This document shows positions 18,066 to 63,880 of a stretch of 64,000 nt of DNA, piece after piece. Made by a program: the position numbers and the translations under genes. Position 1 is the stretch's first letter, and each line of letters opens with the position of its first letter. The stretch comes from Forficula auricularia (taxonomy: Eukaryota > Arthropoda > Insecta > Dermaptera > Forficulidae): contig JALMQS010000089.1 in the NCBI GenBank assembly GCA_024734495.1, positions 3,545,445 to 3,609,444 of the forward strand. The letters run 5' to 3'. The notes under the pieces were generated by a model. It was not told the origin of the DNA and searched no databases. It saw only the letters and a program-made list of their open reading frames with translations.

Positions 18066-21000
18066 CTAAAATCAATTAATTAACCATTAAAATACTTAAA
18101 ATATAATTTAATAATAATGTAATATAATTAAATTTAAAACTTTATGGCCGATTACACCAAACAAACTTGAACTAAGGTAGTAATTAAATAAACAAAGTAA
18201 AACAATTTTTTAGAAACTTTTTAAAATATAAAATACTAGGTAGATTTCACATAAATAAAAGATCAGATGCTTGTTTAGCATGACTCTATATATATTTCGG
18301 GGTATAAGCCAATCTTCAGTTTACAAAGGACAGTGTCTGTCTGATCTTTTATTTATTTATGTGAAACCTATCTAGTATTTTATTTTAAATATTAAAAAGT
18401 TTCAAAATTTTCTTTACTTTATTTTATTAGAAAGACGGACTGATAAGCGAAATAAGTAGGTTATAATGAAAGGCAGTCCATAAATTATTCAATACCCTGA
18501 AGAAGGAGAAAAAGTCTCCGAAATGTCGGAATTTGAATAAAATTTAAATAATTTATGGACTGCCTTTCATTATAACTACATATTTTATTTAAAATGTTTC
18601 ACCGAAAACTCACACCATTCTCCCTTAATTAAATAAACCTCAAATCAACTTTTACGATAAATTCTATTTCAACATTGATACATTTCTAGATGGATATCTT
18701 ACACTTAATGATAAAAAAGTATTGTTTATTTTTGACTAGACAAAAAAAATTTATTTTTACCAAAATTATTAGCTAATTAAAATTTTAATACGATTTTTGA
18801 TTTAGGTGAAAATAAATACAATTTGTAAATTTCAAGTTTGTGTTTTAGTTAGTTACGAATTACAAAGAACATTAATTGGAATATTTTTCTTTGTGGCTAG
18901 TTATTGGGTACTAAAAAAAGATTAACATCATTATTTCAAGTTAGAAAAAATATATAAGTTCAGATATTATTTTCACTCAATATTTGACAAAAATCACCTA
19001 CATTTGATTCGCGATTGAATCAAATGTAGGAAATATTCGATTAAAAAAAAAGAGTAAAAAAAGGAAAGGATATCATTGTTTTAATAGTGATCGACATATG
19101 GTGTAATATACTATATATTACTTATTACGAGGAGTTTAAGTTTAAATATTGCCTGAGGAAGCAGAAAAATATACTACGAAACGTAGCAACATTTTGAAAA
19201 TTTAACTTCTAATTTTATTTCAAGTCCAAGTAGCTAATAACCAGCCATAAAGATAAATATTCATCATGGACGATAACAAAATCAATTCATTAGTGGGAAT
19301 GCACGAAAGGCACTTTGGCATATTATAAACTTCTCCAGCCCAAAAATATTTCGACAAATTCGCCATAGGGGTCAGTTGCATACGGGCTTGATGGCCCGGA
19401 ATGCACTTAGTTATAAATAAAATTATTAAACTTAAAAATATATATAATCGATCAAGATATAGCATTATATGATATTTTGATTATTTATGTCCATCGATTA
19501 AATTAATAAGTTGTTGTTGGGAAATAAGGACAATAGCTTATGGAAATAATTTTTATTTTTTGCCAACGTTTCGTCAACTTTGTTGACTTCCTCAGGAGCT
19601 CAAACAAATTAACTTCTTTGCATTTTTGTCATTCTATCAATATTTATTCTTAGCAAACACATAAGGCCAGTCATCGAACAGATTGAAAATATTTTCCTAC
19701 TTAAATCTTAAAATATATTTCTTTATATATTTGAAGATTTAAATAGGAAAATATTCTCAATCTGTTCGATGACTGGCCTTACATGTGATAAGAATGAATA
19801 TTGATAGAATGACAAATATGCAAAGAAGTTAATTTGTCTATTGTCCTTATTTCCCTACAACAACTTATTAATTATAAAGATTGTTAGATAAAATTAAAAT
19901 GAAAGAATAAATCAAATATATCAACAAATATTTATTTAAAATGCACCTCAGATAAATTTTGCATCGTTTTTAGTTGCGCTGTCGTAGCTTCAATAGATTT
20001 AGTAATATCTTGAGCAGATTCTTTAGCCATGGATATTTCTTCTTCTAATTGTTTGATTTTGGCATCCCAGACCTAAAAAAGACAAGTTATTTTTTAGTAT
20101 TGAAACTTTGATCAGATGTGGATTTTAAGGGATAGATAGATGGCGTATAAAGAAAATTAATTAAAATACAATGGGATTCAAGGGTTTTTGGGGATCAATG
20201 GAACAGCACAACCATGGCCGACAGACCGCATGTACTCCATCAGTGAATAGAAAATATCTCAAGTTTCATTGGTAATAAAGTTCGAGCGTATTTGTAGATT
20301 TAGTCGCTAGATCAGGCATGTCCAAACTTTTCGAAGGCGGGCCATATTTTTATTAATAAACACCTCGTGGGCCAAATGTTAAATATATTTAATGAAAATA
20401 TTAAATAACAACAGACATTAGTGATTGAATAATTTTGCTATATAGATATATATTAAAGGTATACAAAAAATGTAATAATCTTATAAAGTAAAAAAACTTT
20501 ATTTAAAATTGTAAACTGAAATAATAGAATTTTTGATATTAGATTTGATACGACAAACAAATAATTGTAATATTATATTTTGTTATAAAAAATAAGAAAC
20601 ATTTAGTGTGTGTTAGTTAGTATTTAAACAAAAACTATAAATATACAAAAAATATAAATATTAAGTCAATTATTATATAGTAATTAAGTAATGGAGAGGG
20701 ATTCAGCCAATGGGCAGCCTCTGCTGAATAAAAAACTCCCGATTATAGAAAACGTTTCGGCTTCAATTAAATAATGCCATCATCAGTTCCTAAGAGCTGA
20801 AAAAGCGATAGAGCACACATGTAAAATTACAATAAAAATTTTTTACAAAAAAATCCAAACTTGTTAATTACAAAATTATATCTTACAGTATTAGCGACAC
20901 AATTAATTTTATAAATAAATTGTCCGCAGGCAGAGTTGTTGTGGATTTTATCATAATATATACAAAATTATATGAATTACAAAATGGTACATAAATCTTG

Positions 21001-24000
21001 GTGTGCTCTCACTTGATATGGGCAACGTCTCAAGTACAAATATAGCAAATTTCAATTTCATTCAATTAATAATAATAATAATTATGAGGACATTGATCTA
21101 ATTAGGATCACTGACCCCTCACAAACATCTCTTAATTAAAAGATTTCTCAAAATAATTAACAAACATTAAGAATAACCAAAATTCGAATTCTAAATGACA
21201 ATATATAAAAATAAAAATAAAAAATAATATAAATTTTTTCTTTCTCTACCTTTTTTACAATTCTTTCGCCCCTTTCTCAATGTTTATTGTCAGTGATCCT
21301 AATTAGATCAATGTCCTCATAATCATTATTATTATTAATTGAATGAAATTGAAATTTGCTACATTTGTACTTGAGACGTTGCCCATATCAAGTGAGAGCA
21401 CACCAAGATTTATGTACCATTTTGTAATTCATATAATTTTGTATATATTATGATAAAATCCACAACAACTCTGCCTGCGGACAATTTATTTATAAAATTA
21501 ATTGTGTCGCTAATACTATAAGATATAATTTTGTAATTAACAAGTTTGGATTTTTTGTAAAAATTTTTATTGTAATTTTATATGTGTGCTCTATCGCTTT
21601 TTTCAGCTCTTAGGAACTGATGATGGCATTATTTAATTAAAGCCGAAACGTTTTCTATAATTCGGGAGTTTTTATTCAGCAGAGGCTACCCATTGGCTGA
21701 ATCCCTCTCCATTACTTAATTATATACATATACAGCCATCAAATTGTATCAACATTATTATATTGGTTTACATTTACAAATAGCAATATCTATTATTATA
21801 ATTATAATTTAAAGCGTGAAATTTCATGTCTTGAATTAAATCTAAGGCTCAGACAAAGCTGTGGGTCCGAGTGGTATAATGTTTTCTCACCGCCAGGTTC
21901 GCTGTCATCAGTGATCCCCCACCAGTGGCGCACAGTTACCCCTTGTCGCGCGGAACTAATGTATGTGAACTTGGCGATAAATGCATTATTTTAATATATA
22001 TTACTAGCTGACGACCGGGCCTTTCGGCCTGGCGTCCTACTTCGGCGGGGAGCGTCTCGTTCATACCAATTTAATAATTGAAATTTAAAATCTTACTGTA
22101 AGTATCGAAAGAATGTGCTGGATGAAATTGATTCAAAAATAAGGAAGAATAAGGAAAGATTTATTTAACACATTGCCTAAGCACGATCACTATCTGACCA
22201 ATCAGAATCGTTCTAATAATTTAACGCTTTGGCATTGGCTATGCACTGGCCAATCAGATCGTTTCCACATACATATATATCCACATGCTTGTTCTATTTT
22301 ATATATATAGATATGATAGATGATGATAGATAGATAGATAGATAATAATAAAGAGAGCGGGAATTCAAATCACTCATTTGAAAATATATATTTCATATAA
22401 AAGGAGTCTCATTAAACATACTTTTTCAATTGACACTGTTTTTATAAGATATACAGCAATACTTTTGGCTGAACAGAAAATAAGATGCCCTCATTTTTTT
22501 TCTTCACTGAAATACAAGAGTCCAAGGTGCTTTTTTCACTATTATTTATATCCGACGATTGGCTGTTCGGTTTTCAATGTGTGTTTGAATAGGAAAAATG
22601 GGAGCCCCAAACACACCCCGCCCGACGATTGGCTGGTTCGGTTTTCAATGTGTGTTTGATTAGAAAAAAAAATGGGAGCCCGAAACACACCCCGCCCGGA
22701 CTAAACTTTCGGAGGTTCGGTTAATAAGTATTCAGTTCGGCTGACGCCAACCGAACCGTCTAAAAACCAGCCCGAAAAGGAGCTATACGAACCCAACCGA
22801 ACTGAATATATATTAACCGAACCGGAGTCGTTTGCACATATTCGGTTCTATTACGTGGTTTGATTTAATAAAAATATTGTAAATAATATTAATAATTACA
22901 TTAATATTGATCTACTGCACTTTTTATTAAAAACCGATTAGACGGAATCAAATTATATTTTAAAATCCCCGGGTTAATATTCGTTGAGTGCTGCACTCTA
23001 GGAGCGCTCGAATAACTAAATAGGGGAGGAAGAGGTGAGCAGAGTGGGGGAACCCTTTTGACAGCGAAATTGACGCTTGAAAAAGGGGACTCACAAGTTT
23101 GCTTTTACCAAATCTAATTGTAAATAAATTATTAAAAAATCTCGATGATGTGGAGGGCCGTATGAAAGCATCATGCGGGCCGGACTTGGCCCGAGGGCCG
23201 TATTTTGGAAATGCTTGCACTAGAGAGTAGTCGTAGCTAATTCCATAGTCTAAACAAAGTTTTCTGCCTTCTGCTCGTTTTGTGGCCCACAGATAGCCAG
23301 TCTGTGTAGAAATGTGCTATATTTTCGTTATTAATGCTTTTAGAGGCTAAATCTAACACTACGCCACAGTGTTTATTAAAAATGAGGCTTGAAGAGATAG
23401 TCTATTTCCGCTGTCTTTATGTCTAGTAAAAAAGAATTAATCTACAAATGAATACTTTACCATTAGTTCTCCTTTAAGGTTGTCTTCTAATTCTAAGTTT
23501 TTAATCATTTCAGTTGAAATTTTTTCAATTATTTCTTCTGTCTGATTTAATTCATTCATATTCTTCAATAAAATTTCATCTTGTTCTTCCTAGAAACAAA
23601 TTATTTTTTTTAATTAATAAATTGAAAAAAAAATTGAAAGCTTTATCAAAACTTGTACGCTCTTTGAAAATTTTGTCAGCGAACGTTTTGAGCTGAAAAA
23701 GTGAAACTTAGCAGAAAGATGTAGCTTTTTATTACAAAATTGTTTGCCAAATTTCAGCTATAATGGTTCAAGAGTGATATAAATATAAAGGTTCTAATTT
23801 TTTTTTCTATTTTTCATCCGAAATTTGATTTGGCAATATCTACTGAGAGGGGTTATTTGCTTTATATTCAAAAAATTCTCCAAGCAAATGTTTAAAAAAT
23901 AATTTCAGGAATTTTTGAAATTGGACCCTAAACTTCTAAGGGGCGTAAAAATTGACAAAATGTATTGATTTTTGATTAGGCAATATCAATTACTATTTTT

Positions 24001-27000
24001 ATTTGATTCTAAATACGGGAATTATCCTAATTATAATTATATAATTTATTAAACTGATCTTGTAGAAGGTACATTGTGCATGCAACTTAACATTAATTGA
24101 TATAGACTGATTTGTGTTACAATATTATCAAATTTTTTATTCATAAATTGTATATAATTCCTATATACTGCTTTTATATTTCGTTTTAAATTTTGTCTTA
24201 AAAGGCATCCTTTGTTTATTTATACAATTTTGTTGTTGTATGTTCTAAATAATTTATATGTTTTTGCCTAGACATTTATTATTGAACTTTTGTTTCCTAA
24301 TAATGTTTATTATTTTTAAATTGAAAGGTTTTTTTAGTCACAAGACAATAATTTAGTTAATTATTATTATTTATTTTATTGATTCGTGAATTATTGTCTT
24401 TTAGTTTGTGACTAAAAAACCCTTTCAATTTAAAAATAATTTAAAAAATTAAGTCACTTAACTTCTGGAAGAATCTTATAAAAAATAATGCTTATGTTAT
24501 TATTTATCTTTTCCCCTTGCATTATTATCTTTGTCATTTTTAGTTAAATTTTATTTTTTTCTCTTTTTTACTGTTGATATACATTTAATGATTTTGTAAA
24601 AAAAGGGTGTGACTGTCGGTTAAATAAATAAATCAATTAAGAAGGCTAAGATATCTACTTTGCTTTTTGTCTAATAAAAAATTCTAAATACGTACAAATC
24701 TATAAAAAGTAATTTAAGGATGTTTTGAAATTCGCCCCTTAAGGAGGTTCTTTCGCGACAATCCACACAAAAAGTTTTAGCCTCGTAACCATTCTATAAA
24801 TATGAACGGAACTAAAATTTTAGGTTATGTTTTTTTAACGTGACTATAGCACTCACACTACGAAATCTCTATATGGATACACACATACTTGCCGGATCGT
24901 TTCCATCCATTGTGCTTATATCCCCTCCACTAAAAATAATCGCCCAAATATGTTTTTTTTTTGTTTTTTATCAAAACTACGTGGTAAATAATTTCTATTT
25001 TTTTTTTTAAGTTACTCCGAATTAATTATTTTAACAAATATTAGTCTTTCATCAAGATGGTGAAAGTCCTTCAATTAAAAAAAATAAAACAATTATCATA
25101 TCCCCACCTACCCTGTGTAAAAAATGTCATTTTTAATTGCAATTATTTCATGTTTGGTGTGGTAAATCGTATTCAAATTTTAACAGTATGTGTATTATGC
25201 TTTTAATGACTTATATTCCAAGTTTTAAAGACTTCTTGAATTTTTGCATTTGTGAAAGAACTACTTTAACTACCCAAAATGAGGATGAGGAGAAAAATTA
25301 TAATTCCTAGTGCCAAATTAATTGAGAACATGTTTTGTTTTTTTGTCTTTGCTACTTTAATAATTTACTAAGTGAAAAAATCATTTTATATACTTGTTTG
25401 GGTTCAGAGCATTTTGTTTGTTGAGGTAATCAATTTTGGACACGTAATAATTAAATCCCAGACAACCAAGCTGAGAAGGCATGCACATAACATCTAGTCC
25501 TATATAAAGAATTATAATAGGAAACTCAATTAACCGTAAATCTCTATTTACCTGTTGCTCACGTGTCATATTAACGTGTAACACAGTATCTTGTATATCT
25601 TTTAGTTTTTGATTGATGCAATTGCTAACTTGTGTACGTGTATCATAAGTAGCTTCTAATTTTGTACGGTCTTCCGACACTTTGTTGAGCTTATCAACAA
25701 TTTCTCGTCGTGATTTCGAAGCCAACACACGAGTCTCATGGATTTTGGTAATCAAATCGTGGGTGTTGGAGTGTTTTAGTGTCATTTCTGTGATGTCCGC
25801 ATTGATACGATAAAATATTTGATTCAGAGTTGGACCATCCGATTGAGAGTCTTTGTGCTGTAAAAATAAAAAAAGATATAAAAATATTAGTTACTTACTC
25901 AAATACTAATGGACTCTTAAGGTAGTTGTTTCGCGACAATATTAGCAAAAAGTTATATAGAACAGATAATAAGGATTCATAATTCATAAGCCCAAAACTT
26001 TTTGCTGTTTATGTACCACTACTAGCCAATCCCGTGCTCGTTTGACAAATCTGGCAACACTGTCTGAGCTTGTATATATTTTATCATAGAAATGTCAGAT
26101 AAAGTACATTATAAATGAAGATTTGTAAAACAAAAAGTTCTTAATAAGCGATTGAAAGTTGTTGCGACAATGGCTGAAGCGGAAAAAAGTTAAAAAAGTA
26201 CTAAAGTTAACCCACTTTTTAGATTAAATAAATGCTTTGTTGTCAGCTTGTTTTTAGTGTAAATTTTTCATTATTTATTCATTATTATCTCAGAAACTGT
26301 GTTGTAACTATGAATTAAAATATTCTTAAAAAATGTATTAGTTATTGTTTTAATGTTGGTTTAGTTTTTTATAACAATGGTAAGAAGGGTTTCTTAATTA
26401 TAATTAAATATGTATTTAAACTTTCCGATATCCCGTATAGTGCAATGTATAAGAGTCTGAAAAACTCGTATCTTTGGAATTTAATATCTCCGGAACTATA
26501 TTGTTCATAAATTTTGTTTTGTCACCAATCGATGCAGAAGTATTTAAATAATAATCTATCTAAATTTCAAAAAAATCCTAAGAAAATTCATATGGTGAAA
26601 CAACTGAAGATGAAGGCAAGGCCATCAAAATCATAGGGTGTTTCAAGTGAATAAAATTATATATAAAAAGTGTTTATTTAAACACGATGGAACATGAAAT
26701 TGTAACAAAAGATAAATTAGATAAAGGTGTTTTTTTAATTATTTATTGGTGTTGAAAGAGTTCTCGTAAGGAAAAAGAAGGCCGTTGATAAACCAAATTC
26801 TTATTGTCCTTAGCAATATTTATTTTCAAAACTAGAAGACAAGTTTTTTCCTTTAAAATATGAATTATAATCATTGCGAGATGTGAAACAAAGCTATATT
26901 AGCATAGCTAAAGATTTTGAGGTAATTATTATAATATATAAAATTCTTTGCCCGATACACTCACTCACTCACTCATCATCAAAACATCCAGAACCACTGG

Positions 27001-30000
27001 ACATAGAATACATCTATGACATAGGGGCTCACTAAGAAAGCATTTTTTCGAAATTCGACCCCTAAGGGGGTCAAAGGGGGCAAAGTGTGTTTTCACTGAT
27101 TATGCGATATCTCTTAAGGACGATAAAATATCTACTTACTTTTTACTTATAAAAATACTAAATTAAAATATCTAAAAACTAATTTCAGGATTTTTTTGAA
27201 ATTCGACCCCTAAAGGGGTCAAAAGGGGCAAAATATCTTTGCAATGTGTTTACACTAATTATGCATTGTCAATTAAGAAAGATAAGATATCTACTTGATT
27301 TTTACTTAATAAAATTCTAAATACAAATATCTAAAAAGTAATTTCTGGATTTTGTGAAATTCGACTCCCAACTATCCAAAATGTTAGTGGGGGCAAAAAT
27401 TAAAACTCTCTCCTATCTTGATCAAATTTTGTCGAGTTATTCTTTATTACTTTAAGAAACTATTCCTGTAAAAATCAAATATCAAAATTGACTGTATGGG
27501 GGCGAAGAGGGGGGGGGGGGGGCAAATTATAGAAATTTTTAGCTTTTTAGTACATTTACTCTTTAGAAACTGTGGATTATTTATTTGCAAATATCTAAAA
27601 AATAATTTCAAGATTTTTTTGTAATCCGACCCCCGCCCCCCTCAACTATCCAAAATGTGAGTGGGGGAAAAATTAAAACTCTCAGATCTTGATCAAATTT
27701 TGTAAAGTTATTCTTTATTACTTTAAGAAACTATTCCTGTAAAAATCAACTATCAAAATTGACTGTATGGGGGCGAAAGAGGGGGCAAAGTATAGAAATT
27801 TTTAGCTTTTTTGTACATTTACTCTTTAGAAAACTGAGAGTTATTTATTTGCAAATATCTAAAAAATAATTTAAACCTCCCAAAATGTGAGTGGGGGCTC
27901 AGTTTTCTAAAGAGTAAAAATCAATAGCCAAAATGAGTGCATGGGGGTGAAAGAGGGGTCAAAATATTACCAATATATATTACAGACCTAATAATCACAT
28001 TCCGAGACGCCGCCCGCCAGAGCCACCTGCCTGGAGGGCCGAGCTGTAGAGGGCGTGCCGAGGGCACGCCTGGAGCAGCTCGTTATTATAATAAAAGAAA
28101 AAGACTATGTTGGTCGAGCTTGGGAAAAGGCCGAGACTGAGAGTGTTCACTCTAATTAAAAGTCTTCAGTACATAACTTATCTTTCTTTTCTCGTTTTGT
28201 TCCTGAACTAGTCTACTTAAGTCTTTTTTCTTTATAATAAGAATTACACTCATTGTTATGCCATGATTTACATGCCTTAAAGGAACCTATCATATCATAC
28301 CTTTAAGAATAGTCTAATTGTTATTATAAAAGAAAGAGACTTTAGTGGACGAGATTACTTTAATTAAAAATTTGTATATTGAGTAAATACCGCTCTTTCT
28401 TCTAGATTTCATAGTTGAAGCGAGAATCATTTAAACTAAACGATTTCCACATCAAAATGCATGGAATGAAAAGTGTTTGGCTGAACACTGATTGATTCAA
28501 GCTGCTTCTAGAATTCAATATTAACAATGTTTTAGAAATAAGAGCAGGTAAATGTATAGTCAATTATAATCATTATAACTATTTTGTACTTTCTCTGCTG
28601 GTGGTCTAACCCAAACAAATCTTCCAAATCCCCCAATTAAAAATGATATGCTTTTTTTAATTTTTACAGTAAGAATTAACTTAGAATCGATTTTTTTTTT
28701 AAATATAATTTGTTGAATTTTGAAAATATTAAATATGAAAATAGTTTTCAAAACTGTCTCCTAGTTTTGAAAATAAATATTGCTAAGGAATTTGGTTTAC
28801 CAACGGCCTTCTTTTTCCTTACGAGAACAAAAGATAAAATTTAAATTAAAACTTTTTTATTCGAAAGATTATGGTATTAAAATTTGAAAATGATTTCGGA
28901 CACCACAGCTTTTTCTTACGGAGTGTTGTAGAGTAGAGAAGTTGGAAATTGAGCCGTTGTTTTATCGAAAAATTGTGTTCAAAGATAAGGCTCATTTTTG
29001 GCTTGTCAGTTTTGTTGACAAATAAAAGTGCCGTATAAGGAGTTATGGGGTAAGGTCAAACCAAAGACTCCATTGCATCATCCAAAAAAGAGCACCGTTT
29101 GGAGTGGTTTCGTACTAGTGGACTTTATTTCTCAAAAATGAGGCCGGAGCTCAGGTTACCCTCAACAGAGAGCGTTACTGTACGATAAAAAATTATTTTT
29201 TTTCAAATAAGAATGACATTGACTGGGGCTGCGCAAGCCCAGTAAAAAATATAAATACAACTTGATTGAAAAATAATAATTAATATACACTTATATTATT
29301 TATACATAGTATTTGTATTTAGATAAATTTCAATGAATTTATAATAACTTTTAAGGAGATAGGTGTTGGTTCTAGGCGAAACATTTTAATATAATAATAA
29401 AACTTGAGCAAGATGCGAGCTAGGTTTCACAAAAAAAGAAATAAAACAAAATTGAGTTTTGAATTCGAATATATTTTGGGGGTGAGCCCATCAGGAGTGT
29501 ATAAATTGACTTGTCACGATTGTGGTGCTTTTTATATAGGGCAGACCTGCAGCTCATTCAAAACACGTTACTCTGAGCATGTAAGAGCTCTTAATCGTCT
29601 CAATAGATCCGATAACATTAATTTAAATTCGACCTCAGTCTTCGCAATTCACTTACATGAACCCAATCATTCAACCTCTAATAATAACCCTATCCCCATT
29701 CATTTCGAAAGAAAAGGGCTTAATTATATATATTATATTAGTAAATTAAATTGGATCTCTTAGAATCCACTGAAATTAAAATAGCTCTCTCAAAAAATTA
29801 AAATATTTTAAATAACCAATTAGAAATGTATAAAAATACAATTATTGATTATATATTATAATAAATTAACTAAGCATTCCTTCTATTGTTCGCACATTGA
29901 ATATTGATATTAGGGTAATTGTACCCTTTCAGGTACTTTCCCATTCCTTCTTATAATAGCAGATATAGTTTCCCATCAGCTGGTTAAAAACTCAATTGTT

Positions 30001-33000
30001 CCATTTGTTGAAAATAGTAATTCTTAGTACACTTTCTCCTCTTCCCCCTACCTTACCCTCACCACACACATTTCAAAAAAATTTTTTTTCAATTTATAAT
30101 CATTTTCTCTGACTCCTGAAGATGGGCTCACTCCCGAAATATATCGAATTCAAAAGTCAAGTTTGATTTATTTCTTTTTGTGTGAAACCTACCTCGCATC
30201 TTGCCCAAGTTTTATTATTATATTTCAATGAATTTAATTTTCAACCTTATTTTCAAATGCCGATAGATGGTTATTCCTCGACTGTTAAATGAGAATCGAT
30301 CATTATTTTTGAATTAAAGTCAACATGAACTGCAAATTGCAAGTGATATCTGATTAATAATAAAGGAATAAGCATATTAATATTTCAAATGAATTTGGAT
30401 AAAGTTTAGCAACGATCCGTTGCAGTTTATTATTTTTATAGACCTTGTATTTATTCAATAAATTATTATATATACAACTCAGATTATTCGTGTCCGTTTT
30501 AAAGTTTTTAGTGAAAACCACACTAACGTTAATAATTTTAATTTACAAATTATTAAATTTTAATTTTTGATACTACAATCTAAGTATAAGCTTTGAATAA
30601 ATCTCAACTCTTTTGAGATTTTCGCCAATAAAAAGTTATAAATAAATAATAAAATAAAAATTATAACATAGATGAAATTCAAAACCTCACCTCTTTGATT
30701 ATTTTCTTCAAATTAGCTTGTTCTTTAGTTAACTCGCAATTCAATTTATTTAAGTCGTCTATTTCTACTACATTTTCAGCAAGTTTTTGCTTCAAAGTTT
30801 CGGTTTCTTTGGTTAACTCTGCGTTTAATCTTTGAAAGTGAGACAATTTTGCACACGACACATCGTTGATTTTGTTAGAGTGGGACAAATCTACACTCAA
30901 CTCTTCGTTGATTTTTTTAGAGTGGGACAAATCTGCACTCAATGTATCTCTCTCTTCAATCAAATTATCATTCGTTTCCTTCAACATGCCCACAATTGTT
31001 TGCAATTTTTCAACATCTTTAACCTTTCGCGTCAATTGTTCTATCTCTTCGGATTTTTGTAAATTTGTAGCCATTTCGTGATCTCGCTTAGATGTCAACT
31101 CTTGATTAGAAGCTTGTAAAATTTCAATTTGCTTTTCGCTACTTTCAAGTTGTTCAATTTTACTTTTCAGTTCTTTTTTTTGCGTAACAATTATCTTGTT
31201 AAATTCTTGTACCTAAAACAAAGAATATTTTTTTTAGACAAAAATTTAGTGTTTCTAAGTGAATGTTAGAAGAAGAGGAATTTACAAAAAAGAATAAAAA
31301 TAGAAATTATAGTAATATCTAAAGAGACTAAGTTCTTGAAGGCTAAGTTTAAGGAATATAGGGATACAAATAAGGGAAGAGGAGATGCCACCAAAACAAC
31401 ATAGAAAATAACATTTATATTTAAAAAAAAAAAAAACATGCTTCTAAAAAGTACAAAATAATGTAATACTTAAGGAGGTTCTTTCGCGACAATGCACACA
31501 AAAAGTTTTAGCCTCGTAACCACTCTATAAATATGGACGGTGTTAAATTTTTAGGTTGTTTTTTTAACGTGACTGTACATTTTACGCTAGTACTTTCTAT
31601 TTATGAATGGATCGTTTCCAAGCCATTGATATTTTATCCCCTCCACTAAAAATAATCGCCCAAATATGTTTTTTTTTTATCAAAACTACGTGGTAAATAA
31701 TTTCAATTTTTTTTTAACTTACTCCGAATATATTATTCTAACAAATATTAGTTTTTCATCAAGATGGTGTAAGTCCTTCAATGAAAAAAAAAAATAAAAT
31801 AATGATCATTTTCCCACCCTTTACCATACGTAAAAAATTTCATTTTTTATTGCAATTATTTCATGTTTGGTGTGGTAAATCGTCTTCAAATTTTGCCCGT
31901 GTGTTTATTATGCTTTTAATGACTAATATTCCAAGTTTCGAAGACTTCTTCAATTTTTGCATTTGTGAAAGAACTACCTTAATCAAAAAGTGAGGGGCGC
32001 AGAAACTTTTAATTAATTTCGTCAAAGTGCCCTCGGCTTTTTGATTAAATATTACATTATTTTGTACTTTTTAGAAGCATGTTTTTTAGTTTTTAGATTT
32101 TTTAAATATAATTTATTTTTTTACTTTTTAGTCTCAATTATTTTTATGAAGAAAAGTTTGCGGAATTTAACAGAACGAAAGTCACATTGATAGATATATA
32201 CAAGTGAAACTAATATAAGAAAGCTATGTTAAGATTTGCCGATGACATTGCCCTTCTAGGAAGCAACAAAAAAGAATTAGAGGACGCTCTGAAAGGAATT
32301 AACCAAATCCTAATAGAAGAAATCAAAATGAAAATAAACAAGAATAAAACCAAGGGCTTAGTTTGTACAAAAAAAAAACGAGACAGGAATGCATCAAAAT
32401 TATCCAAGAAAATCTAGGAGTTAAGGAATTCCGCTAGGTAGGAAGTAATATAACATGGAATGGGAGGAGCGAAAGCGAAATTAAATCAAGAATTGCCCAA
32501 GCAAAAATGGGGTTTAATTCAAAACAAAAACTACTATGCTCCTCCTCAATCAGCTTAGAAAACAGGAAACTGCTATTGAAGACATATGTATGGAGCATAG
32601 CCATGTACGGCTGTGAAACCTGGACAATTAGAGAAGAGGAGAGAAAGAGATTAGAGGCTTTCGAAATGTGGTGCTACAGAAGAATGATGAATATCAAATG
32701 GATGGATAAAATTATAAATGAAGAAGTTCTTGGAAGAATCGGAGAAAAGAAGAACCTTGTGGAAGAGTCTGAAGAAGAGAAGAGGTCAGATTATGGGGCA
32801 CACACTGAGACATGGGGGACTGCTTAGGGATATCTTGGAGGGGGAGGTGGGAAAGACCCAGATTAGAATATTTCAACCAAATAATTGGGGATATGGGATG
32901 CCAGACATTTAGAGAGGTCAAATAGCTGGCGGGGGACAGAGCCGAGTGGAGACGTGTGGTTGCGTCAAACTAGTCTTAGGACTGTATACTCAATGATGAT

Positions 33001-36000: not shown

Positions 36001-39000
36001 ATATATTTATAATTGAATGTAATGGAAGGCAGCCCAGAGGTAGTGAGGAAAGAAAAAATCAACACATATCAAATAAGTTGTAATTTATTGGAATCCTTCC
36101 TCCTTTCCTTTCAAACCGACGTTTCGGAGGATTTTTCCCTCCTTCTTCAGGGTTTCAAAGGGTCAATGAATGAAACAAATAAAATGTTTCCTTCTTCTCT
36201 CCACAGTAGTGTTCAAAAACTTTCTTCTTTTTTAACAAAGGCATAGAAAAACAATTTTTTTTCCTCTTTTTCTTACCCTGAAGAAGGAGGGAAAAATCCT
36301 CCGAAACGTCGGTTTGAAGGGAAAGGATTCCAATAAATTACACCTTATTTGATATGTGTTAATTTTTTCTTTCCTCACTACCCCTGGGCTGCCTTCCATT
36401 ACATTCAATTAAAATTTCTACCAGTCGGTCTCTCTCCAGAGAAAATTTCGTTGCAAAAAAATAATATAGTTAGTTTTATAAAATAATTGTATTTATCACT
36501 TCTGATATACATGTAAGCTTTTAAAAAGAAATCAAATACCTTTTGTAATTTCACTGAAACATTTTGTAATTCAGTCATGGTCAGTTTTTTGTCTTCTGCC
36601 ATTATAATATTCATTTGCTCTAACTGTTCTAATTCCTCTTTCAAAAGTTTTTCCCTGCCGCCTAGGATAATTTCAATAGATTCTGTACTCTAATAAAAAA
36701 AAAGAAAACATTTTGTTAAAATGATAATACATACATCTGTCCGTTCCAGCTACTCGTATATTAAAATTTAATAAAAATTACAATTTATATTCATTAATAT
36801 TTTTTTTTAATTTAAAAATGTAGTAATATTTATAATTTTTAATTAAAATAATTGATAGTAATCGTGCAGTATTTTTCAAAAGATCCCAATAATGATCAAA
36901 AAAATTTTGATCGAAAAAAATTGAGCATACCCATAGTGTTAAGGTCTTCAAAAATGGCTTATATTGTAAACGTAAACATGATAAAAAATTATATTATTGT
37001 TTTTTTTTTCTATTCTTTTATTGGCCTCGGGAACATAGATGCCCATTTAGCCAGCCGAAAGTATTCGTTCATATTTCTCCAAATTCGCCAGCCCTCAAAT
37101 GCTGATCCCTAAGGCGGGCCGCTCGGGGGGGACAGTAGGGCAAGCAGAGCATCCCTCTGCAACCGGCCAAAGTGCATCGCGAATGGCCGACGAATATAGA
37201 GCAATAAAAGAACGTACTTGTTCATAAGTCCCTTCAATGAGGGATAAAACAGAAGACTTGTATTTATTTATTTATTTAGATAATTTTACGGACTAGTAGT
37301 CCACTTACAAAATTAACAAATTACCTAGTCTAACACCTTTAGAAAAATTAATATATAACAAAAATTGACTATGCGATTGAATACTAAAACAATAAATTTT
37401 TTATAAGCTATATATTTATATAAAAATGCGAATAAATAAATTAATAAATTATATTATAAGAGATAGTAATTTTTTTTAAAAAATGTCAAGAGTAATCATC
37501 AAGTATGAGGTTCTAATTTCACTCAAAATTTAATCAGCTTTTTAACTCAATATAAAACAAGTAAATATGAATTAATGTTTTGATATTGTTTGGTTTATGG
37601 GCTGCTAGTTTGGTAATTCATGCAAAAACAAACTTTATTTTGTCAAGATAATTATTATCTCTTAAAATATCATATTTTTGATGTTCCCTCTATTTTATGC
37701 TTTTTTGAGTGCCTTAACGTCGATATTCCGCTCAATTTCTTTCATCAAAATAGTATTACCCGTAGTTTTAAAAAACACCACTTGTCCTGCACGTTTACAA
37801 GACACCTAATCTTCGATTTACATGGTACAAGAAATGCATGGTGTCGGTTTAATACCGTTTCAAAAAAGTGGGAAAACATAATTTACATCAGTGGTTCTTA
37901 ACCTCTTACCACTCGCGAACCTCTAAATAATTTAGGTTTTTCGGCCTCTTAGTTTCTACTAGTATTATTGATAAAAATTAGCAAGGGCGTCATCGGTGAA
38001 TAACAAACATATTCTTCCAACTTACGTTGTTTCACGATCATACTATATTCATTTTACTCATGGTTACTGCGATGTTGGTGTACTTGTTGGAGACCTTTAC
38101 ATAAATCTGTTTTTGTTGGAATGCCAAAATAGCGATGTCATTTGAACCAGTGATGTTGGTGTTGATGGCCTTGGCATCCTTGTGTCTTTTGAGGAAAACC
38201 AACCCTCCATGACTCTTATGAAGGAGAAAAGTTGTTTTCGTCGATAACTGTCTGTCAATAGATTCACAGTGAATTCTCGCCTTCTATATTATTTAGATTT
38301 TAGCCATATCGTGGTTTTCACCAAATAAGCTTTATTTTAAAAGAGTGCAGAAGATATATATAAAAATCTAGTTCATTTTTATTGTTTTCTGAGGCCCATT
38401 GAAATCCGAGTTAACAACCACTGATTTACACGGTTCTAGTTCAGTTTAACAAGGACAGAGAATTGCAAATTTTCAATGTGAAATAACGATTCGAAATGCA
38501 TAATCACAAGATACTTTTGGTGAACCAATCTAACAATTAAATCGAGGGTTAGGTGTACTTCGTCATAATGAGTATGGTGTAGCACAAATAAAGTAGAGAT
38601 CAATTCTTTACTCCTGCGGCTATTCTCTTCTGCTTGCATATTGGAAATTTTTAAAAGTAATTCATCAATCTTTTCATCTTTAGCTGCGATCTCTTTATTT
38701 TTTTCAATTAGCTGATTGTTCAAATCCTTAAAAAAAGAACAATTATAATTTGCATTAAATCAAATTATTTGATAGTTGAGCTTTAAGGCCAGTTTCTGCA
38801 TAGAATTTTCTGTTCTCTGCTCTGGAATCGCAACATAACATGTTACTTTACAAAGGAATGTTTCCTTACCACCATAGTGCGACCAGGTCCCAACCATGTC
38901 TAAAATTGCTTCGAGAGAGATTCATGACCGGATAATGGCTATTTCCGGAAACAATTGGATCGACACGATTGATGCGTCAGAAACAAGAGGCATAGCCGGA

Positions 39001-48000: not shown

Positions 48001-51000
48001 AACAGACCAGATTTATATACACTGAGAAAAAAATGTGAATTTATAGAAAAATCATAAAAGATCTTTTTTGTAGTGGCTCAATTCCCTACAAAAGTCAGTT
48101 CTGATCTTATCGATAACTTAATTCATTCATGATCATGAGTTATAAAATTCCAAATTTAAAAGTTTTTTTTTTAAGTTATTTAAACGTGAAATAGAAAATC
48201 GCCAAACAAAGTCTATTAGATCATTTAAAATAAAGAAATAGATTAACTGTAGTAAGAATATTTAGTTATCCCAAATAAATTTTTCACGCCTAAACCACTG
48301 AACGGATTTTTATGAAATAGGCTACTTTTTTTAGCGAATATAAAACTGAAGGGGGTGAAATCTGAAATAGGGTTTGAAAGTTTGTATGAGGAACCAATTA
48401 TTTCTCAAGTTAAGGATATAAAAATTCATCATAATTATACTTTTGATAAGAAATAAAGAATATTTCTGCTTTTAAGTACCAGCTATTCTTAGTTTGGGGT
48501 CAAATGGTCGTGTGTGAATTGTCCGAAAATTATTTTTATAAATTTTTTTTTTATTTATATACAAAATTCCGTAAGCGTCCAGCTCTGACATAAAAAAAAA
48601 ATTGGTCACGTTACGACTAGATTATATTGAGAAGTTTACATTGAGGGACTAAATAAATATTTTATATATGTTTCACAAAGAAAAGAAATATAGATTATGG
48701 GCAAGAGTCAATATATATTTCGGGCAAAGAGTCCATCTTGAGGAGTTTACATTGAAGGATTAAATATAAAATATAAACTCCTGAAGATGGATGGGCTCGT
48801 CGTCCGAAATAGATGTCGAGTCTTGATCACACGACCAATAAATATTTCTTTTATTTGTGAAACCTACCTAGTAATCTAATTTTAATTTCATCAAAAGCGT
48901 TAAAAATGGCCTATTTATCGAAAAAGTCTATTTTTTGTAATTATGATATATTCTAAACTATGGAAATGATAATTTGTTGTTTGTTGCAAATTGAGAAGTT
49001 TGCAAAACAATTCCGATGGTACAAAGAAAGGGATGAATTTCTAACGGGTCTTTAGTGGGGCGAGTGAGAAAAGGTCTCTGGTGGAGTTTTTTTGTCTAAA
49101 AGGGCTTTAGAAAATGGCGATGACAAAGCACTTTGCTCAAGGTCAAAACAGGAAAGGGAGTTTATAATAGAAGGTGGCATTTTTCCTTTCAGAGGACTTA
49201 GAAAAATAGCAAACGAAAGCAAGGTTAAAAGACAAAGGGACTCTAATAATATAATATAGCAAAATTAAATAAAATATTGTTTTTTTTATAATTATAAAAT
49301 ATTATTGAATCGCAATTAGTAATTTTGTTTTAAATAAGCTTGGAGGAAAAAGTGAATATTCGATAAGCATATAGGTACATATTATGTATTTAATTGAAAA
49401 TCTTTTCTTTTGCCGAGAGTAGCAGAGTTGTTGATTCACAAGAGAAAGAAACAAAGAGGTTGCCCTCTGCTTGATACAAATAAACATACACACATATATA
49501 TCGAAATAATATATATCTGTACATATATTATTTATTTGAGACTATAGTTTCGAAGGCCTGGCTCCCATCATCAGTCTTTTTAATTATAAATATTATTTTT
49601 CGTGGATTCAGTATCGCGTGGATATTGAAAATTTCTTCCCTTTCTCTTTTTTTCTTTCTTTCTCAGCTGAGAAAGAGGGAGAAAGGGAAGAAATTTTCAA
49701 TATCCACGCTGATACTGAATCCATAAAAACTAGTATTTATAATTAAAAAGACTGATGATGGGGGGCCAAGCCTTCGAAACTATAGTCTCAAACAATAAAA
49801 ATAATATATATACAGATATATAATTTCGATATATATGTGTGTATGTTTATTTGCATCAACCAGAGGACAACCTCTTTGTTTCTCTTTGTGGACATATTAT
49901 GTATATTCAGTAGTGGGTTTATTAGGCCTAGGTCCGTGAGGCCCGGGGCAAAAAGGGAGAGATAATTCAAATTAAAAATTGATTTGGATTTGTTTTATTA
50001 TAAATGGATGGAAAGTTTTTAGTAAATTTTATTGTCTATCGAGGCTAAATTAGTGCAAGAAATTGATTACGGCGATATAATCGACGTTTTCGCTCAAACC
50101 AAAGCTAGAAAGAAGAAATTGATCTCATAAGTTGATTAAAAAAATGTATTTACTATTTATTACGAAAAATTATATTTGAATTAGTAACTTATATTAGAAA
50201 TTATTTTTGAAAAATTTATGTAAACCAATAAACAGTTATATTTTTGAACCGTAAGTTCTGAAGATACAGAAGCAAAAATCTGATCAGTTCTTTGTAAAAT
50301 TGCAATCACTTTGGCACCAAAACAAACTTTCTATGAACTTGCGTTCTCGAACTATTGAAATACCGGAACAGACAGAAAGGAAAATTATGCTTGAAAAAGA
50401 TTTTTTTTCCTTTGTGTCTTGTTCCGGTATTTACAATAGTTCGAGATGCAAGCTCATAGAAAGTTTGTATAGTTCATGAAGTTTGTTTGCGTGCCAAAAT
50501 AATTGTAATTTCACAAAGAACTGATCAGATTTTTGGACTCTCTATCTTCAGAACAAAGAAATAGAAGTCCGCCGGGAACGCTTATACTGGTCCAATGATT
50601 CAGAATCAATTAATTTTCTACGATAATTTAGTTATAAGTGCTTTATCTCTGTGTGTTAGCTGATAATAATAAGAGTAGGCGGCAGATTATAAGTGATTCA
50701 ACTATTTGCGCAGCTTGGGCCAGAGTCCCCGGCTCGAATGTGGTCAACCAGACCCCGTTTAAAAATATAATTGGATTCCTAATTAATAATAAATATTTTA
50801 TCAACCAAAAGATGAATTATATGCATTTCTTATAAAGTAAATTAGTAATAATAATAATTAAGGAAAAATTTGTATTAATGATGCAATTTTCCTTGTTTGT
50901 ATTAATAGAAAAGAATATAAATTGAAGAAAAAAGAATATATATTATTGATTAGGAATATATATAATAATAGTAAAGAATAAATAAAAGGTAAAAAAGTTA

Positions 51001-51892: not shown

Positions 51893-52658
51893 AGGCCCGC
51901 CTTCAGCGGCCCTCTTGTTAGCCCCCTGGATCCCCGCTCCCATCCACCACCACCCCCGAAACCCACCCAGCACCCCCAACCCCGCAACATGCACCCGTGG
52001 CCAACCACCATACCACCCCCATTACGTCCCTGGATCAACATTTTGGGAGGTTAGTTTTTGCATTTCTAGCCTTCTAGTGACCCACAGATTATTTATACAA
52101 AATTTGGTTGAGTTTGGTCCAAGAGCAAGAATTTTCATTTTGTGACCCTCACCCCCAATTTGGGTGGTTAATTTTGCATTTCTAGCTCTCTAGAGGCCCA
52201 CAGATTATGTATACAAAATTTGGTTGAGTTTGCCCCAAGGGCAAGAATTTACATTCCCCCCCCCCCCCCCCTCCTTGGGTGAGTTTTTTTAAACAAAAGT
52301 TGTCAGAAATCACATCCCCTACAATTTTGCTCATAATAAAATTTGCCGTAGATTTAATAGAGTTTAGGAGTAATTTGATAATTTTTATTCAGTGCGCCCC
52401 CCCCCAACCCCTTTTAGGGTCAAAATATCAAAACGTTATATAGCTATAAAAGTAAGTTAGAAGACATCTGATCCAAATATGAAATTTCATAATAATCCCT
52501 TCAGCCGTTTTTACGTGAATCGTGAGCAACTTTTTGCGGAAACCACGAAAACATACAGACAGACAGGAATTTTGTTGAGGGTGTTTTCGTTCATAACTTT
52601 GCTTGGAACGTGTGCAACCAAAATTTGGCGTGATTTGGAGCAATGTACAGACAAAACC

Positions 52659-52680
<22 letters not shown>
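51893..52680 (-). mobile_element. Dispersed repeat, copy 2, short G-rich tract
   Basis: Inverted relative to 33408-34575. On the minus strand it starts AAGGTTTTGTCTGTACATTG, passes CTGTCTGTCTGTATG and AAACGGCTGAAGGGATTATT, and ends GGCGGGCCTTGCATCTAGT. The C run on the plus strand at about 52255-52271 is a slippage site. A further scrap of the family is at 55433-55510. Confidence 0.75.
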
Positions 52681-54375: not shown

Positions 54376-54647
54376 GGGAACCCCTGCTCTAAATAATGAT
54401 AAAATAGATGAGGTCGATAAAAAGTCAAGAAACTTTTGAAGGGATCGAGGGGCCAATTTTTGGCGACCCGTCTATTATTTCTGAATTGCATCCAAGGATC
54501 CAAGGTAGCAAGAGAATGCTTGAAAGTCTCTATTCACAGATTAAAGCCATATTCAAGACAGAGGAGAATTTGAGGGTTAGTAGAGAGAGAGAGAATGCAA
54601 AGAATAGAAGAGAATGCAAAATACACCCCCATGAATTTTAAAACTTA

Positions 54648-55238
54648 CCATTTTCCTTTGTATGAGAGAATGATAAATACGAATATGATAGTCTTGCCAG
54701 AAACTCAATTCAGGGATAAAATTTCAATGCTAGGCGTCACACTAGGGTTTCAAAACTCTCCATTTTCCGTTGTATGAGAGAATGATAAATACAAATATGA
54801 TAGTCTTGCCAGAAACTCAATTCAGGGATAAAATTTCAATGCTAGGCGTCACACTCGGGTCTGACCTTTCTTAGAATGACCATATCTCAACTACTGCTAA
54901 AGCTGCAGCGCGCAAGCTTGATCCCCTATTTAGGTCTAGACGCCCAGTCAACTTCTTACACTGTATAGGGCTCAAATTCGTCCCTGTCTTCAATATGGCT
55001 CTCATCTCTGGAGAGGGGCCTCCAAGCATTCTATTGCCACACTGGATGCAATTCAGAAGCGAGCAATTAAACTAATAGGAGACCCCCTGGATCACCGAAG
55101 AAACGTTTCTGCCCTTTCCTGTACTACAGATACTATCATGGTGTCTGTTCAGTCAGAGTTGAAATCAATTATCTCCCCTAAAGCACTCTTTAAGAGAAAC
55201 ACGCGGTGTAACTCCTTCTCTCATCATTATCATAAAAA
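54648..55238 (+). pseudogene. Jockey-like LINE copy, internally deleted and locally duplicated
   Basis: Shares GGGATAAAATTTCAATGCTA, GCAATTAAACTAATAGGAGA and the 3' end CTTCTCTCATCATTATCATA with 3830-4660. The first 112 bp (CCATTTTCC to CACACT) are present twice in tandem (54648 and 54760). The RT frame has several shifts, and the segment before the 3' UTR is missing. Confidence 0.75.
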
Positions 55239-57815: not shown

Positions 57816-58821
57816 TTAAGCTAGTTGTTTCGCGACAATACTAGCAAAAGTTAATGCTAATAACAAGGGTCTTCAACCCGCGGCCCGCCAACAGCACTCT
57901 CAATAACGACTACAAAAAATAATTTTTAGAATTTTTTTTTTATAACATTAAATTTTAAAATTGAAGAAAATAAAGTTCTATGTGAGGGGAGCGTTTGCGC
58001 CCCCCGCTCGGACAATTCGATCGCGACACAATTCCGAGATCAAAAGTAGATCTTATATACCGGCGACCGCTCCCCCCAAATCAGAGGTCTGGATCCGCGC
58101 CTGGGTCCGGCCCGCTGTGCAGAAAAAAAAAATTTGGCCCTTGATTTGTAAAACGTTGAAGACCCCTTTGCTAGAGTATATAGAACAAACAATGAGAATT
58201 CATAAGCCCAAAACTGTTTACTGTTTATGTACCGATTCTAGCCAATCCCGTGCTCGTTTGACAAATCTGGCACCATTGTAAAAGATTGAATATTTTTATA
58301 CTAAAATGACAGATAAAATATATTTTAAAAGTTAAAAAATTTCTATAAAAATGGTTTTCTTATTTTTTAACCAATGTAATCAACGCCTACCTTATGAAAA
58401 TTATAATTTTGAAAAAATCTAGCGGATGCGCGCTTTATACATCTTTGGCTGGTTAAATAAATGCGATGTTGCCAAATTGTTTTTAGTGTAAATTTTTTTT
58501 ATACATTTTTCATTTTTTCAGAAACTGTGTTGTAACTATGAATCAAAATTGTCTTAAAATATGTATTGGTTATTGTTTAATGTTGGTTTAGTTTTTTATA
58601 AAAATGTTAAGAAGGGTTTCTTAATTATGTATGTAAATTTTCCGAAAATCCCGTATAGTGCAATGTATGAGTCTGAAAAACTCTATTTTTGAAATTTAAT
58701 ATCTCCGGATCTATATTGTTCATAAATTTGCCACCAATCGATGCAGAAGTTTTTAAATAATAAGCTGTCTAAATTTCAAAAAAATCCTAAGAAAACCCAT
58801 TTGGCGGAACAACTACCTTAA
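57816..58821 (+). mobile_element. TTAA-target DNA element, family 1 copy 4, interrupted
   Basis: Bounded by TTAA; ends TTAAGCTAGTTGTTTCGCGA and, opposite strand, TTAAGGTAGTTGTTCCGCC. The interior matches copies 1-3 except for a 307-bp insertion at 57864-58170. Confidence 0.85.
57864..58170. mobile_element. hAT element nested in the TTAA element
   Basis: Ends CAAGGGTCTTCAACCCGCGG and, opposite strand, CAAAGGGGTCTTCAACGTTT. GGCCCGC-rich patches lie inside both ends, as in hAT MITEs. The host sequence TTAATGCTAGAATATATAGAAC of the other copies shows the empty site. A degenerate 8-bp duplication (GCTAATAA / GCTAGAGT) is possible. Confidence 0.78.
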
Positions 58822-60030: not shown

Positions 60031-60166
60031 AAAATTATTTTTATTTCTTCTGAATGTTTTTCTTATGGGAAAAAATAGATTAAAAAACTGATTTTTATCG
60101 ATTGTTGTTTGATTGATTTGACCTGAGGACTCATTATCAAAGGGGGACACCTATATGAGCTCCCGA

Positions 60167-61295: not shown

Positions 61296-62675
<1,380 letters not shown>

Positions 62676-63039: not shown

Positions 63040-63112
63040 AATCATAATACGAAATTAGATATCTTCATATTAAAATCTCAGAAGACCGTCGTTTGTTATA
63101 ATCATTTAAAAA
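63040..63112 (-). ncRNA. Second U35-like box C/D copy
   Basis: In the upstream RPS11 intron. Box C-like ATGATTA (63105-63099), guide ACGACGGTCT (63092-63083), D' CTGA (63081-63078) and ATGAAGAT as C' (63068-63061). One extra T before the guide. The 3' box D is not evident, so this may be a non-functional copy. Confidence 0.55.
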
Positions 63113-63579: not shown

Positions 63580-63650
63580 AATCATAATACGATATTAGAA
63601 ATCTTCATATTAAAATCTCAGAAGACCGTCGTTGTTATAATCATTTAAAA
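63580..63650 (-). ncRNA. Third U35-like box C/D copy
   Basis: Box C-like ATGATTA (63644-63638), guide ACGACGGTCT (63632-63623), D' CTGA (63621-63618) and C' ATGAAGAT. It belongs to a roughly 140-bp direct repeat shared with 63000-63125. Confidence 0.55.
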
Positions 63651-63682
63651 ATACAAGATTTAAAAGTAATAAAATAAATTAA

Positions 63683-63880
63683 TAAAGTAAGGGGTGTGTA
63701 GTTTCACAGTGAATGAAATAAAACTCAAGAGGTTTATACAAACTCAATATATTTCGGATTATTAGTTCATCTGATTTTAGTCCTGATGATGGACTAATAA
63801 TCCGAAATATATTGAGTTTGTATAAACCTTTTGAGTTTTATTCCATTCACTGTGAAACTACACACCCCTTACTTTATTAA
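63683..63880. repeat. Palindrome with a hammerhead-like core
   Basis: Ends GTGTGTAGTTTCACAGTGAA and TTCACTGTGAAACTACACAC are inverted, followed inward by TGAAATAAAACTCAA-type text. The flank ACATGTTTCACCTAAAACCT is shared with 18593-18615 (ATGTTTCACCGAAAACTC), linking it to the same family. Confidence 0.85.
63781..63820 (+). ncRNA. Hammerhead-like motif
   Basis: TC, CTGATGA, T, GGA..TCC, then GAA-ATATAT-T and GA. Core intact, stem III ATATAT self-complementary, triplet ATT. The left arm (minus strand, about 63745-63775) reads CAGATGA and is disabled. Confidence 0.5.

What the first reader, a model, noticed from the sequence alone, without database searches (positions are those of the whole stretch)
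18288..63820. At least 14 hammerhead-ribozyme-like cores dispersed on both strands
The pattern CTGANGA - one nucleotide - stem II - GAAA recurs at 13665(-), 18288(-), 18493(+), 19149(+), 19561(-), 20745(-), 21613(+), 30111(+), 36109(-), 36273(+), 48775(+), 49538(-), 49749(+) and 63781(+), plus broken ones at 7095, 29472, 48700, 59218 and 63745. Position 7 varies (A, T or G) exactly where the hammerhead core allows any base, while C3-G5-A6-G8-A9 and G12-A13-A14 are kept. Stem II covaries between copies: GGAGG/CCTCC, GGC/GCC, GTCAAC/GTTGAC, GGG/CCC. That covariation supports selection on an RNA fold. A constant extra base after CTGANGA deviates from the textbook core. Established: hammerhead ribozymes occur in Penelope-like elements. 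Inference: this host carries an active or recently active family.
Basis: partly seen in the sequence, partly recalled or inferred. Interest (0 to 1): 0.9.

Follow-up and report, generated by a model that had tools for sequence, protein, structure and literature searches.

The report
Penelope-type hammerhead ribozymes in mirror-image repeats
This stretch of a (probably animal) genome carries ten or more copies of a hammerhead-shaped, predicted self-cutting RNA motif of the kind already known from Penelope jumping genes; many sit in mirror-image repeats that would likely fold up and hide the cutting site, and whether any copy still cuts is untested.

Summary
All 14 cores listed as intact carry CTGANGA, one base, a stem II segment and GAAA. 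Ten pass a strict three-helix descriptor with exactly one inserted base; 2000 shuffles average 0.012, and the form without the insert gives none. Stems I and II co-vary across seven sequence families. Rfam lists no hammerhead. The extra A/U is not new: by my reading it stands in the published Anolis Penelope-like ribozyme, which cuts with its protein present, and a viroid ribozyme has one. One copy lies in a textbook Penelope-like insertion: 15-bp target duplication, tail, inverted pLTR, broken GIY-YIG endonuclease, 3' pLTR. No same-family head-to-tail pair lies within 3 kb. In units A and B, which fold as hammerheads alone (A nearly), the whole transcript is predicted to bury the core. 'Active' is not supported; 'recently active' is possible. 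Half of eight head-to-head joints fall within 11 bases of C3 and none within 10 bases of the predicted cut. New members of a known kind.

The parts
36110..36158 (-). HHR copy, family B, unit B; stem I AAACC/GGTTT, stem II 6 bp, helix III ACGT, predicted H17 = C
   Evidence: local fold is stem I plus stem II with open core
36270..36318 (+). HHR copy, family B, unit B
7077..7116 (-). decayed HHR copy, family B (GAAA part missing)
   Evidence: (E 0.0017)
20743..20794 (-). HHR copy, family A, unit A
21609..21660 (+). HHR copy, family A, unit A
49532..49582 (-). HHR copy, family C, unit C; helix III ACTATAGT
49744..49795 (+). HHR copy, family C, unit C; helix III ACTATAGT
13649..13698 (-). HHR relic, family C, stem II lost
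30108..30153 (+). HHR copy, family D, in the 3' pLTR of the endonuclease-bearing insertion
48773..48825 (+). HHR copy, family D, unit E; one mismatch in helix III
63775..63821 (+). HHR copy at the centre of palindrome F (placed in family D by eye)
18283..18327 (-). HHR relic, family D, unit G; stems I and II weak
18489..18535 (+). HHR copy, family H, at the tip of palindrome H
19145..19193 (+). HHR copy, family J; one C-A mismatch in stem II
19557..19603 (-). HHR copy, family I
29327..29341 (+). left 15-bp direct repeat (likely target-site duplication) of unit D
29342..29381 (-). likely 'tail' extension on the inverted pLTR of unit D
   Evidence: tail as described in PMC3846280
29382..29498 (-). 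inverted, 5'-truncated pLTR fragment with decayed HHR core
29497..29858 (+). GIY-YIG endonuclease fragment, frame 1 to 29721 and frame 3 from 29745 (frame-shifted)
30222..30236 (+). right 15-bp direct repeat (likely target-site duplication) of unit D
20676..21726 (.). unit A: head-to-head inverted pLTR pair, arms 97% identical over 442 bases
36007..36414 (.). unit B: head-to-head inverted pLTR pair
49447..49883 (.). unit C: head-to-head inverted pLTR pair
48667..48866 (.). unit E: palindrome around an HHR
63678..63881 (.). unit F: palindrome centred on the HHR core
18450..18585 (.). unit H: inverted arms flanking the HHR

Best explanation
The window holds ten strict copies (at least fifteen counting degraded ones) of a minimal type I hammerhead-ribozyme fold with one extra A or T after A9, which are likely remnants of Penelope-like retrotransposons and whose RNA would be predicted to cut itself at H17. 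Shown from sequence: the core; stems I and II with compensatory changes between families; a helix III reduced to a self-complementary ACGU, AUGU, AUAUAU or ACUAUAGU; one copy in the 3' pLTR of an insertion with a GIY-YIG endonuclease fragment, an inverted pLTR with a longer end, and 15-bp flanking direct repeats. Inferred: because a 4-nt ACGU cannot close a hairpin, cutting would need two copies to pair through helix III (a dimer), as the title of Lunse et al. 2017 and a review passage say of this class. Inferred: the palindromes arise when reverse transcription primed on both cut target strands gives two cDNAs that join head to head. Predicted by folding: in units A and B, which fold as hammerheads alone (A nearly), a transcript through the whole unit pairs sense with antisense and hides the core, so these copies would be off in cis. 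Inferred: in unit D the predicted cut lies about 76 nt inside the 3' end, between the likely reverse-transcription start and the body, so cutting would spoil the template; in six of eight units the homology of the two arms runs past that point, so those arms were copied from RNA intact there.
For: Strict three-helix descriptor: 10 hits with one inserted base, 0 with none, shuffle mean 0.012. Permutation over seven family representatives with the register re-chosen: stem I 23 of 28 pairs against 14.0 expected, 8 of 5040 permutations as high; 8 to 24 of 5040 over the eight settings tried. Stem II 26 of 28 against 18.4, p 0.0012; p from 0.0004 to 0.048 over two to five pairs counted. Alignment of seven copies from five families (A, B, H, I, J): 81% of cells paired against 57% shuffled, covariation 0.598 against 0.211, each with 0 of 500 shuffles as high, and every slid register lower. 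Both unit B copies fold locally into stem I plus stem II; unit A copies form stem II and an outer stem one base out of register. Anolis PAc RNA passes the same reading with an extra U, stem I 3 bp, helix III ACGT, C17; its paper reports protein-assisted cleavage. Unit D anatomy. Masking. Joints.
Against: No hammerhead family is among the Rfam matches, even in permissive mode on the window and two short stretches. Two of the five measures do not stand out: pairs changed on both sides 7 against 4.9 (40 of 500 shuffles as high) and further pair types 10 against 7.6 (61 of 500). A covariance model trained on families A, B, H, I, J lists family D copies only at E 1.2 and 3.1 and family C not at all up to E 5, so families C and D rest on the descriptor and shared anatomy. 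The copies in units C, D, E, F, G, I and J do not fold locally into the hammerhead as monomers, and H forms stem II but not stem I. The endonuclease scores below Pfam's cut-off (19.4 against 22.6) and no reverse transcriptase was sought. The 15-bp repeat is longer than the 8-10 bp duplications in the passages of PMC3846280. Cleavage was not tested. The joint count is small and post hoc. In PAc, ribozyme mutants did not change insertion in vitro.
Confidence: 0.85

Rival explanations
1. The motifs in this window are hammerhead-derived fossils: every copy here is dead, and the pairing records only what the parent elements once had. (This overlaps with the best explanation, which does not claim present activity.)
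For: Several copies are decayed (13690, 18319, 7108, and the left arms of D, E and F). The endonuclease fragment is frame-shifted. Palindromic context is predicted to bury the core in A, B and C.
Against: Ten copies keep all core positions and helices, and unit B copies fold correctly alone. Covariation between families points to selection on the fold in the parents.
Confidence: 0.35
2. The motif is a DNA-level signal (terminal inverted repeat or endonuclease site of a foldback element) and the hammerhead likeness is incidental.
For: Copies sit in palindromes.
Against: Stem I pairs bases on both sides of the motif that differ between families; in the strict descriptor only the one-base insert gives hits in more than one family; the same fold stands in the tested PAc RNA.
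Confidence: 0.03
3. The copies are metazoan retrozymes (small tandem non-autonomous repeats with hammerheads giving circular RNA).
For: Type I fold and AT-rich units of a few hundred bases without open frames of 120 codons.
Against: No same-family head-to-tail pair within 3 kb; helix III is minimal; one copy is tied to an endonuclease fragment and an inverted pLTR.
Confidence: 0.07

Closest known systems
Minimal hammerhead ribozymes of Penelope-like elements (Cervera & de la Pena 2014; Lunse et al. 2017); neither paper is held, known here through titles in reference lists and passages of PMC7761336 and PMC6155905
   Same: Type I, no or tiny helix III, dispersed and in pLTRs of Penelope-like elements
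   Different: I could not compare consensus sequences; the passages speak of copies in tandem, whereas here no same-family head-to-tail pair lies within 3 kb and many copies are in inverted pairs or palindromes
PAc (Poseidon, Anolis carolinensis) hammerhead, PMC11167929 (passages)
   Same: Core, extra U after A9, short stem II, ACGU helix III, C17, 3-bp stem I; the printed start codon AUG begins at A9
   Different: PAc heads an ORF; in the window 7 of 9 copies with an extra T keep ATG there, but no open frame of 120 codons or more runs from them, and families B, H, I and J have A instead
CChMVd plus-strand hammerhead with extra A10 (PMC3705267, passages)
   Same: Single extra base between A9 and stem II; A or U tolerated, C and G harmful
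   Different: A viroid ribozyme, with loop 1-loop 2 contacts mentioned in the passage
Canonical Penelope insertions in Adineta vaga, PMC3846280 (passages)
   Same: Inverted pLTR, optional tail on one of them, short target duplication, head-to-head palindromes
   Different: Ribozymes do not appear in the passages shown; duplications of 8-10 bp there, 15 bp here; window units are mostly inverted pLTRs without coding sequence

Membership tests
Hammerhead ribozyme, type I | Core C3-U-G-A-N-G-A9, G12-A-A14, A15.1-U16.1, H17 not G | tested here: met
   10 copies in strict form; 14 of 15 examined have CTGANGA and GAAA
Hammerhead ribozyme, type I | Stems I and II conserved by pairing, not sequence | tested here: met
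   (three of five measures)
Hammerhead ribozyme, type I | No insertion in the textbook core between A9 and stem II | tested here: not met
   one A or T in 15 of 15; precedented in PAc and CChMVd, so not disqualifying
Hammerhead ribozyme, type I | Matches Rfam hammerhead models | tested here: not met
   none listed
Hammerhead ribozyme, type I | Self-cleavage at H17 | not testable with these tools
   bench assay needed
Small dimer-type hammerheads of Penelope-like elements | Helix III minimal and self-complementary | tested here: met
   13 of 14 measurable copies, 48781 has one mismatch (the helix length was chosen by score, which favours this); background for a self-complementary AxxT tetramer at that place after GAAA is 176 of 1235
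Small dimer-type hammerheads of Penelope-like elements | Cleavage as dimers | not testable with these tools
   none
Penelope-like element (unit D) | GIY-YIG endonuclease | tested here: inconclusive
   Pfam E 0.0013, 19.4 bits under the 22.6 cut-off; of 7 homologues scanned 5 match at 19.2-22.0 bits and 2 give nothing
Penelope-like element (unit D) | Reverse transcriptase | not tested
   copy is 5'-truncated at the endonuclease; no RT query was run
Penelope-like element (unit D) | pLTR, inverted pLTR with tail, short target duplication | tested here: met
   a 14-mer is shared by chance in 15 of 20000 random place pairs
Metazoan retrozyme | Head-to-tail tandem units | tested here: not met
   0 same-family pairs within 3 kb

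The most novel reading that the evidence does not exclude
The Penelope-like hammerhead is an abort switch, not a maturation tool: it lies between the reverse-transcription start and the body of the element, so cutting destroys the template, and only RNA that stays uncut (lone monomers, or RNA masked by an inverted copy) is copied. The genome keeps the record: head-to-head joints gather at the ribozyme's 5' edge and none of those mapped falls at H17. Palindromic units that hide their own ribozyme can then spread as units; B and B' share the same centre.
Probability: 0.15. Interest if true: 0.65.

Novelty: new member of a known kind. Interest (0 to 1): 0.35.

Why it matters
A review passage calls the role of these Penelope-like hammerheads unknown and a mystery (PMC7761336). 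In this window the Rfam models list none of them, while a simple descriptor (one inserted base, self-complementary helix III, stem I check) finds ten at about one false hit per 80 shuffled windows of this size. The joints of head-to-head copies offer a genomic test of whether cut or uncut RNA is the template. If the pattern holds genome-wide, the ribozyme's place in the transposition cycle becomes testable from assemblies alone.

Tried and rejected
Rfam in permissive mode, whole window and two short stretches: no hammerhead among the listed matches; I take the many miRNA-type hits as reflections of the palindromes. Pattern scans of viral contigs with one inserted base (67 stretches) and none (66): over the 119 loci, the full descriptor gives 8 hits with one inserted base (three of them the same sequence), 4 with none and 1 with two; by my own rough estimate, not a call, that is what stem I pairing by chance would give, so I drew no relatives from them. 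Tighter patterns with fixed CC/GG stem I: 0 in viral contigs for each of three versions (one of them a control with a mismatched stem I), 1 in the prokaryote genomes, taken as chance. A covariance model from families A, B, H, I, J found its seven training copies and the 7077-7116 relic (E 0.0017); two family D copies reached E 1.2 and 3.1, family C did not appear up to E 5, and six other weak hits were listed; of these, those at 61935 and 43311 show no GAAA and lie in another repeat, and the other four were not examined. The 59218 site was rejected: no GAAA. PDB sequence search with homologue P0008: no match. tblastn of homologue P0002 in plasmids: none. The all-copy alignment split the extra base into gaps and was not used for counts. 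The first script for the helix table stopped with an error; repeated. A permissive alignment of inverted partners over-extended and was replaced by three stricter scorings. No paper search was made for the masking or joint pattern, so I do not claim that they are absent from print.
Full report
CHECK OF THE OBSERVATION. I listed every CTGANGA in the window on both strands and then read each listed copy with its flanks. All 14 cores listed as intact are there. Two more helices can be read. Stem I pairs the bases just before CTGANGA with those just after the predicted cleavage base H17: AAACC/GGTTT in 36150, GGAA/TTCT in 20786 and 21617, TTGC/GCAA in 19153, ACTC/GAGT in 48781. Helix III is reduced to a short self-complementary word between GAA and H17: ACGT in 36150, 36278, 20786, 21617, 19153 and 19595; ATGT in 18497; ATATAT in 30116 and 63783; ACTATAGT in 49574 and 49752. 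A strict descriptor asks for the core, three or more stem II pairs, a fully self-complementary helix III ending in U, H17 not G and two or more stem I pairs. It finds 10 copies with one base between A9 and stem II, none with zero bases, and two family-C copies again with two or three bases. With three or more stem I pairs 4 of the 10 remain, with four or more 3. Over 2000 dinucleotide shuffles the one-base form averages 0.012 with a maximum of 1.

COVARIATION. I grouped 15 copies into seven families (B: 36150, 36278, 7108; A: 20786, 21617; C: 49574, 49752, 13690; D: 30116, 48781, 63783, 18319; H: 18497; J: 19153; I: 19595). A, B and C rest on sequence matches; D rests on similar 3' ends read by eye, weakest for 63783. 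Swapping 3' arms among one representative per family, with the helix III length chosen afresh each time, stem I has 23 of 28 pairs against a mean of 14.0, reached by 8 of 5040 permutations; the eight settings tried give 8 to 24 of 5040. Stem II has 26 of 28 against 18.4, p 0.0012; over two to five pairs counted p runs from 0.048 to 0.0004. On an alignment of seven copies from families A, B, H, I and J, 81% of cells pair against 57% in shuffles, the covariation score is 0.598 against 0.211, and every slid register is lower; the counts of pairs changed on both sides (7 against 4.9) and of further pair types (10 against 7.6) do not stand out. Folded alone, the two B copies give stem I plus stem II with an open core. 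The A copies form stem II and an outer stem one base out of the register proposed here (stem I probability 0.17). H forms stem II but another outer pairing. The copies in C, D, E, F, G, I and J do not fold that way as monomers.

THE EXTRA BASE. It is A in 6 and T in 9 of 15 copies, never C or G; with seven families in AT-rich DNA that is not significant alone. It is not new. The methods of PMC11167929 print the template RNA of the Anolis element PAc. Run through the same code it reads CTGAGGA, extra U, stem II, GAA, ACGT, C, with a 3-bp stem I. [quoted passage not shown] In the window, 7 of the 9 copies with T read ATG from A9 on (not 13690 and 18319). A review passage on the viroid CChMVd (PMC3705267) describes an extra A between A9 and G10.1: it lowers the trans-cleaving rate moderately, changing it to U raises the rate 3-4-fold, changing it to C or G is very harmful.

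CARRIER. The copy at 30116 lies about 260 bases behind a GIY-YIG endonuclease fragment (29497-29721 in one frame, 29745-29858 in another). The Pfam score is just under the curated cut-off. The unit is bounded by identical 15-base words at 29327 and 30222; two 85-base stretches at that distance share a 14-mer in 15 of 20000 random trials. From the left it reads: direct repeat, a 40-base extension absent on the right, an inverted pLTR fragment, the truncated endonuclease, the 3' pLTR with the ribozyme, direct repeat. PMC3846280 (passages) describes this arrangement for Penelope: inverted pLTR, optional 31-bp tail on one of the inverted pLTRs, duplications of 8-10 bp, head-to-head palindromes. 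I infer a Penelope-like element, and from that, not from any call, a probably animal host; no reverse transcriptase was sought.

PALINDROMES. Three families have a minus copy followed by a plus copy, and none has a head-to-tail pair, within 3 kb. Units E, F, G and H are shorter palindromes around one ribozyme. PMC11167929 reports that the PAc protein cuts and extends both target strands and starts reverse transcription at two nearby internal sites that bound the tail. Two cDNAs joined head to head would give these units, and two start sites would give a tail on one side; this is inference. B and B' (around 7 kb) share the palindrome centre, so either the palindrome moved as a unit or the region was duplicated; B' has lost the second ribozyme.

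MASKING. In whole-unit transcripts of A, B and C, both strands, the core is paired with probability 1.00 and stems I and II have probability 0.00, because sense pairs with antisense. This changes the picture for B and A, which locally form stem II with probability 0.99-1.00; the C copies do not fold as hammerheads locally either. In D, E, F and G the core is partly paired (0.41-0.69) and the ribozyme stems are absent. H keeps stem II (0.87) and I keeps it in part (0.43), but stem I is at most 0.23 in any whole unit. This is a thermodynamic prediction, without co-transcriptional folding or protein.

JOINTS. Aligning each sense copy to its inverted partner under three scorings, homology starts, relative to C3, at -3 (B), -4 (D), -11 (E), +5 (F), +47 to +50 (H), +52 (G), -72 to -94 (C), and at the limit of the stretch or beyond, -260 (A). 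A relic at 26604, probably family C by eye, starts at about C3 inside another repeat. So 4 of 8 units, or 5 of 9 with the relic, join within 11 bases of C3, and none within 10 bases of H17 (+28 to +36). In 6 of 8 units (A to F) the shared arms run past H17. The interval was chosen after seeing the data and the E alignment is weak. If cut RNA had been the template, joints at H17 would be expected. In D, H17 lies about 76 bases inside the 3' end, so anything upstream was copied from RNA that was intact there.

LIMITS AND VERDICT. Activity cannot be shown here. The endonuclease is broken, genome-wide copies could not be searched, and the two founding papers on these ribozymes are not held; I know them by title and through review passages. 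The finding is a set of new members of a known kind, with a predicted masking effect and a joint pattern that deserve a genome-wide test.

Noticed in passing
11314-11736: Inverted arms (92%) with two tRNA-like matches on opposite strands (11430-11505 minus, tRNA-Ser-like; 11544-11619 plus); possibly a tRNA-derived short repeat.
   Followed up: no
3929-4657 minus; 54636-55085: A 242-codon open frame that looks by eye like a LINE-type reverse transcriptase end, with an inverted, partly tandem-duplicated relative at 54.6-55.1 kb; Pfam gave nothing.
   Followed up: partly
25954-26605, 46998-47637, 58170-58814 and inverted at 7899-8192: A dispersed repeat family in four places; the 25954 copy is interrupted at 26604 by what looks by eye like a family C ribozyme fragment starting at C3.
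   Followed up: partly
33405-34058 and 52053-52678: Inverted repeat blocks 18-19 kb apart, with an internal tandem of about 120 bp.
   Followed up: no
19604-19837: A palindrome of about 234 bp (89% identity) directly upstream of ribozyme I, not containing it.
   Followed up: no
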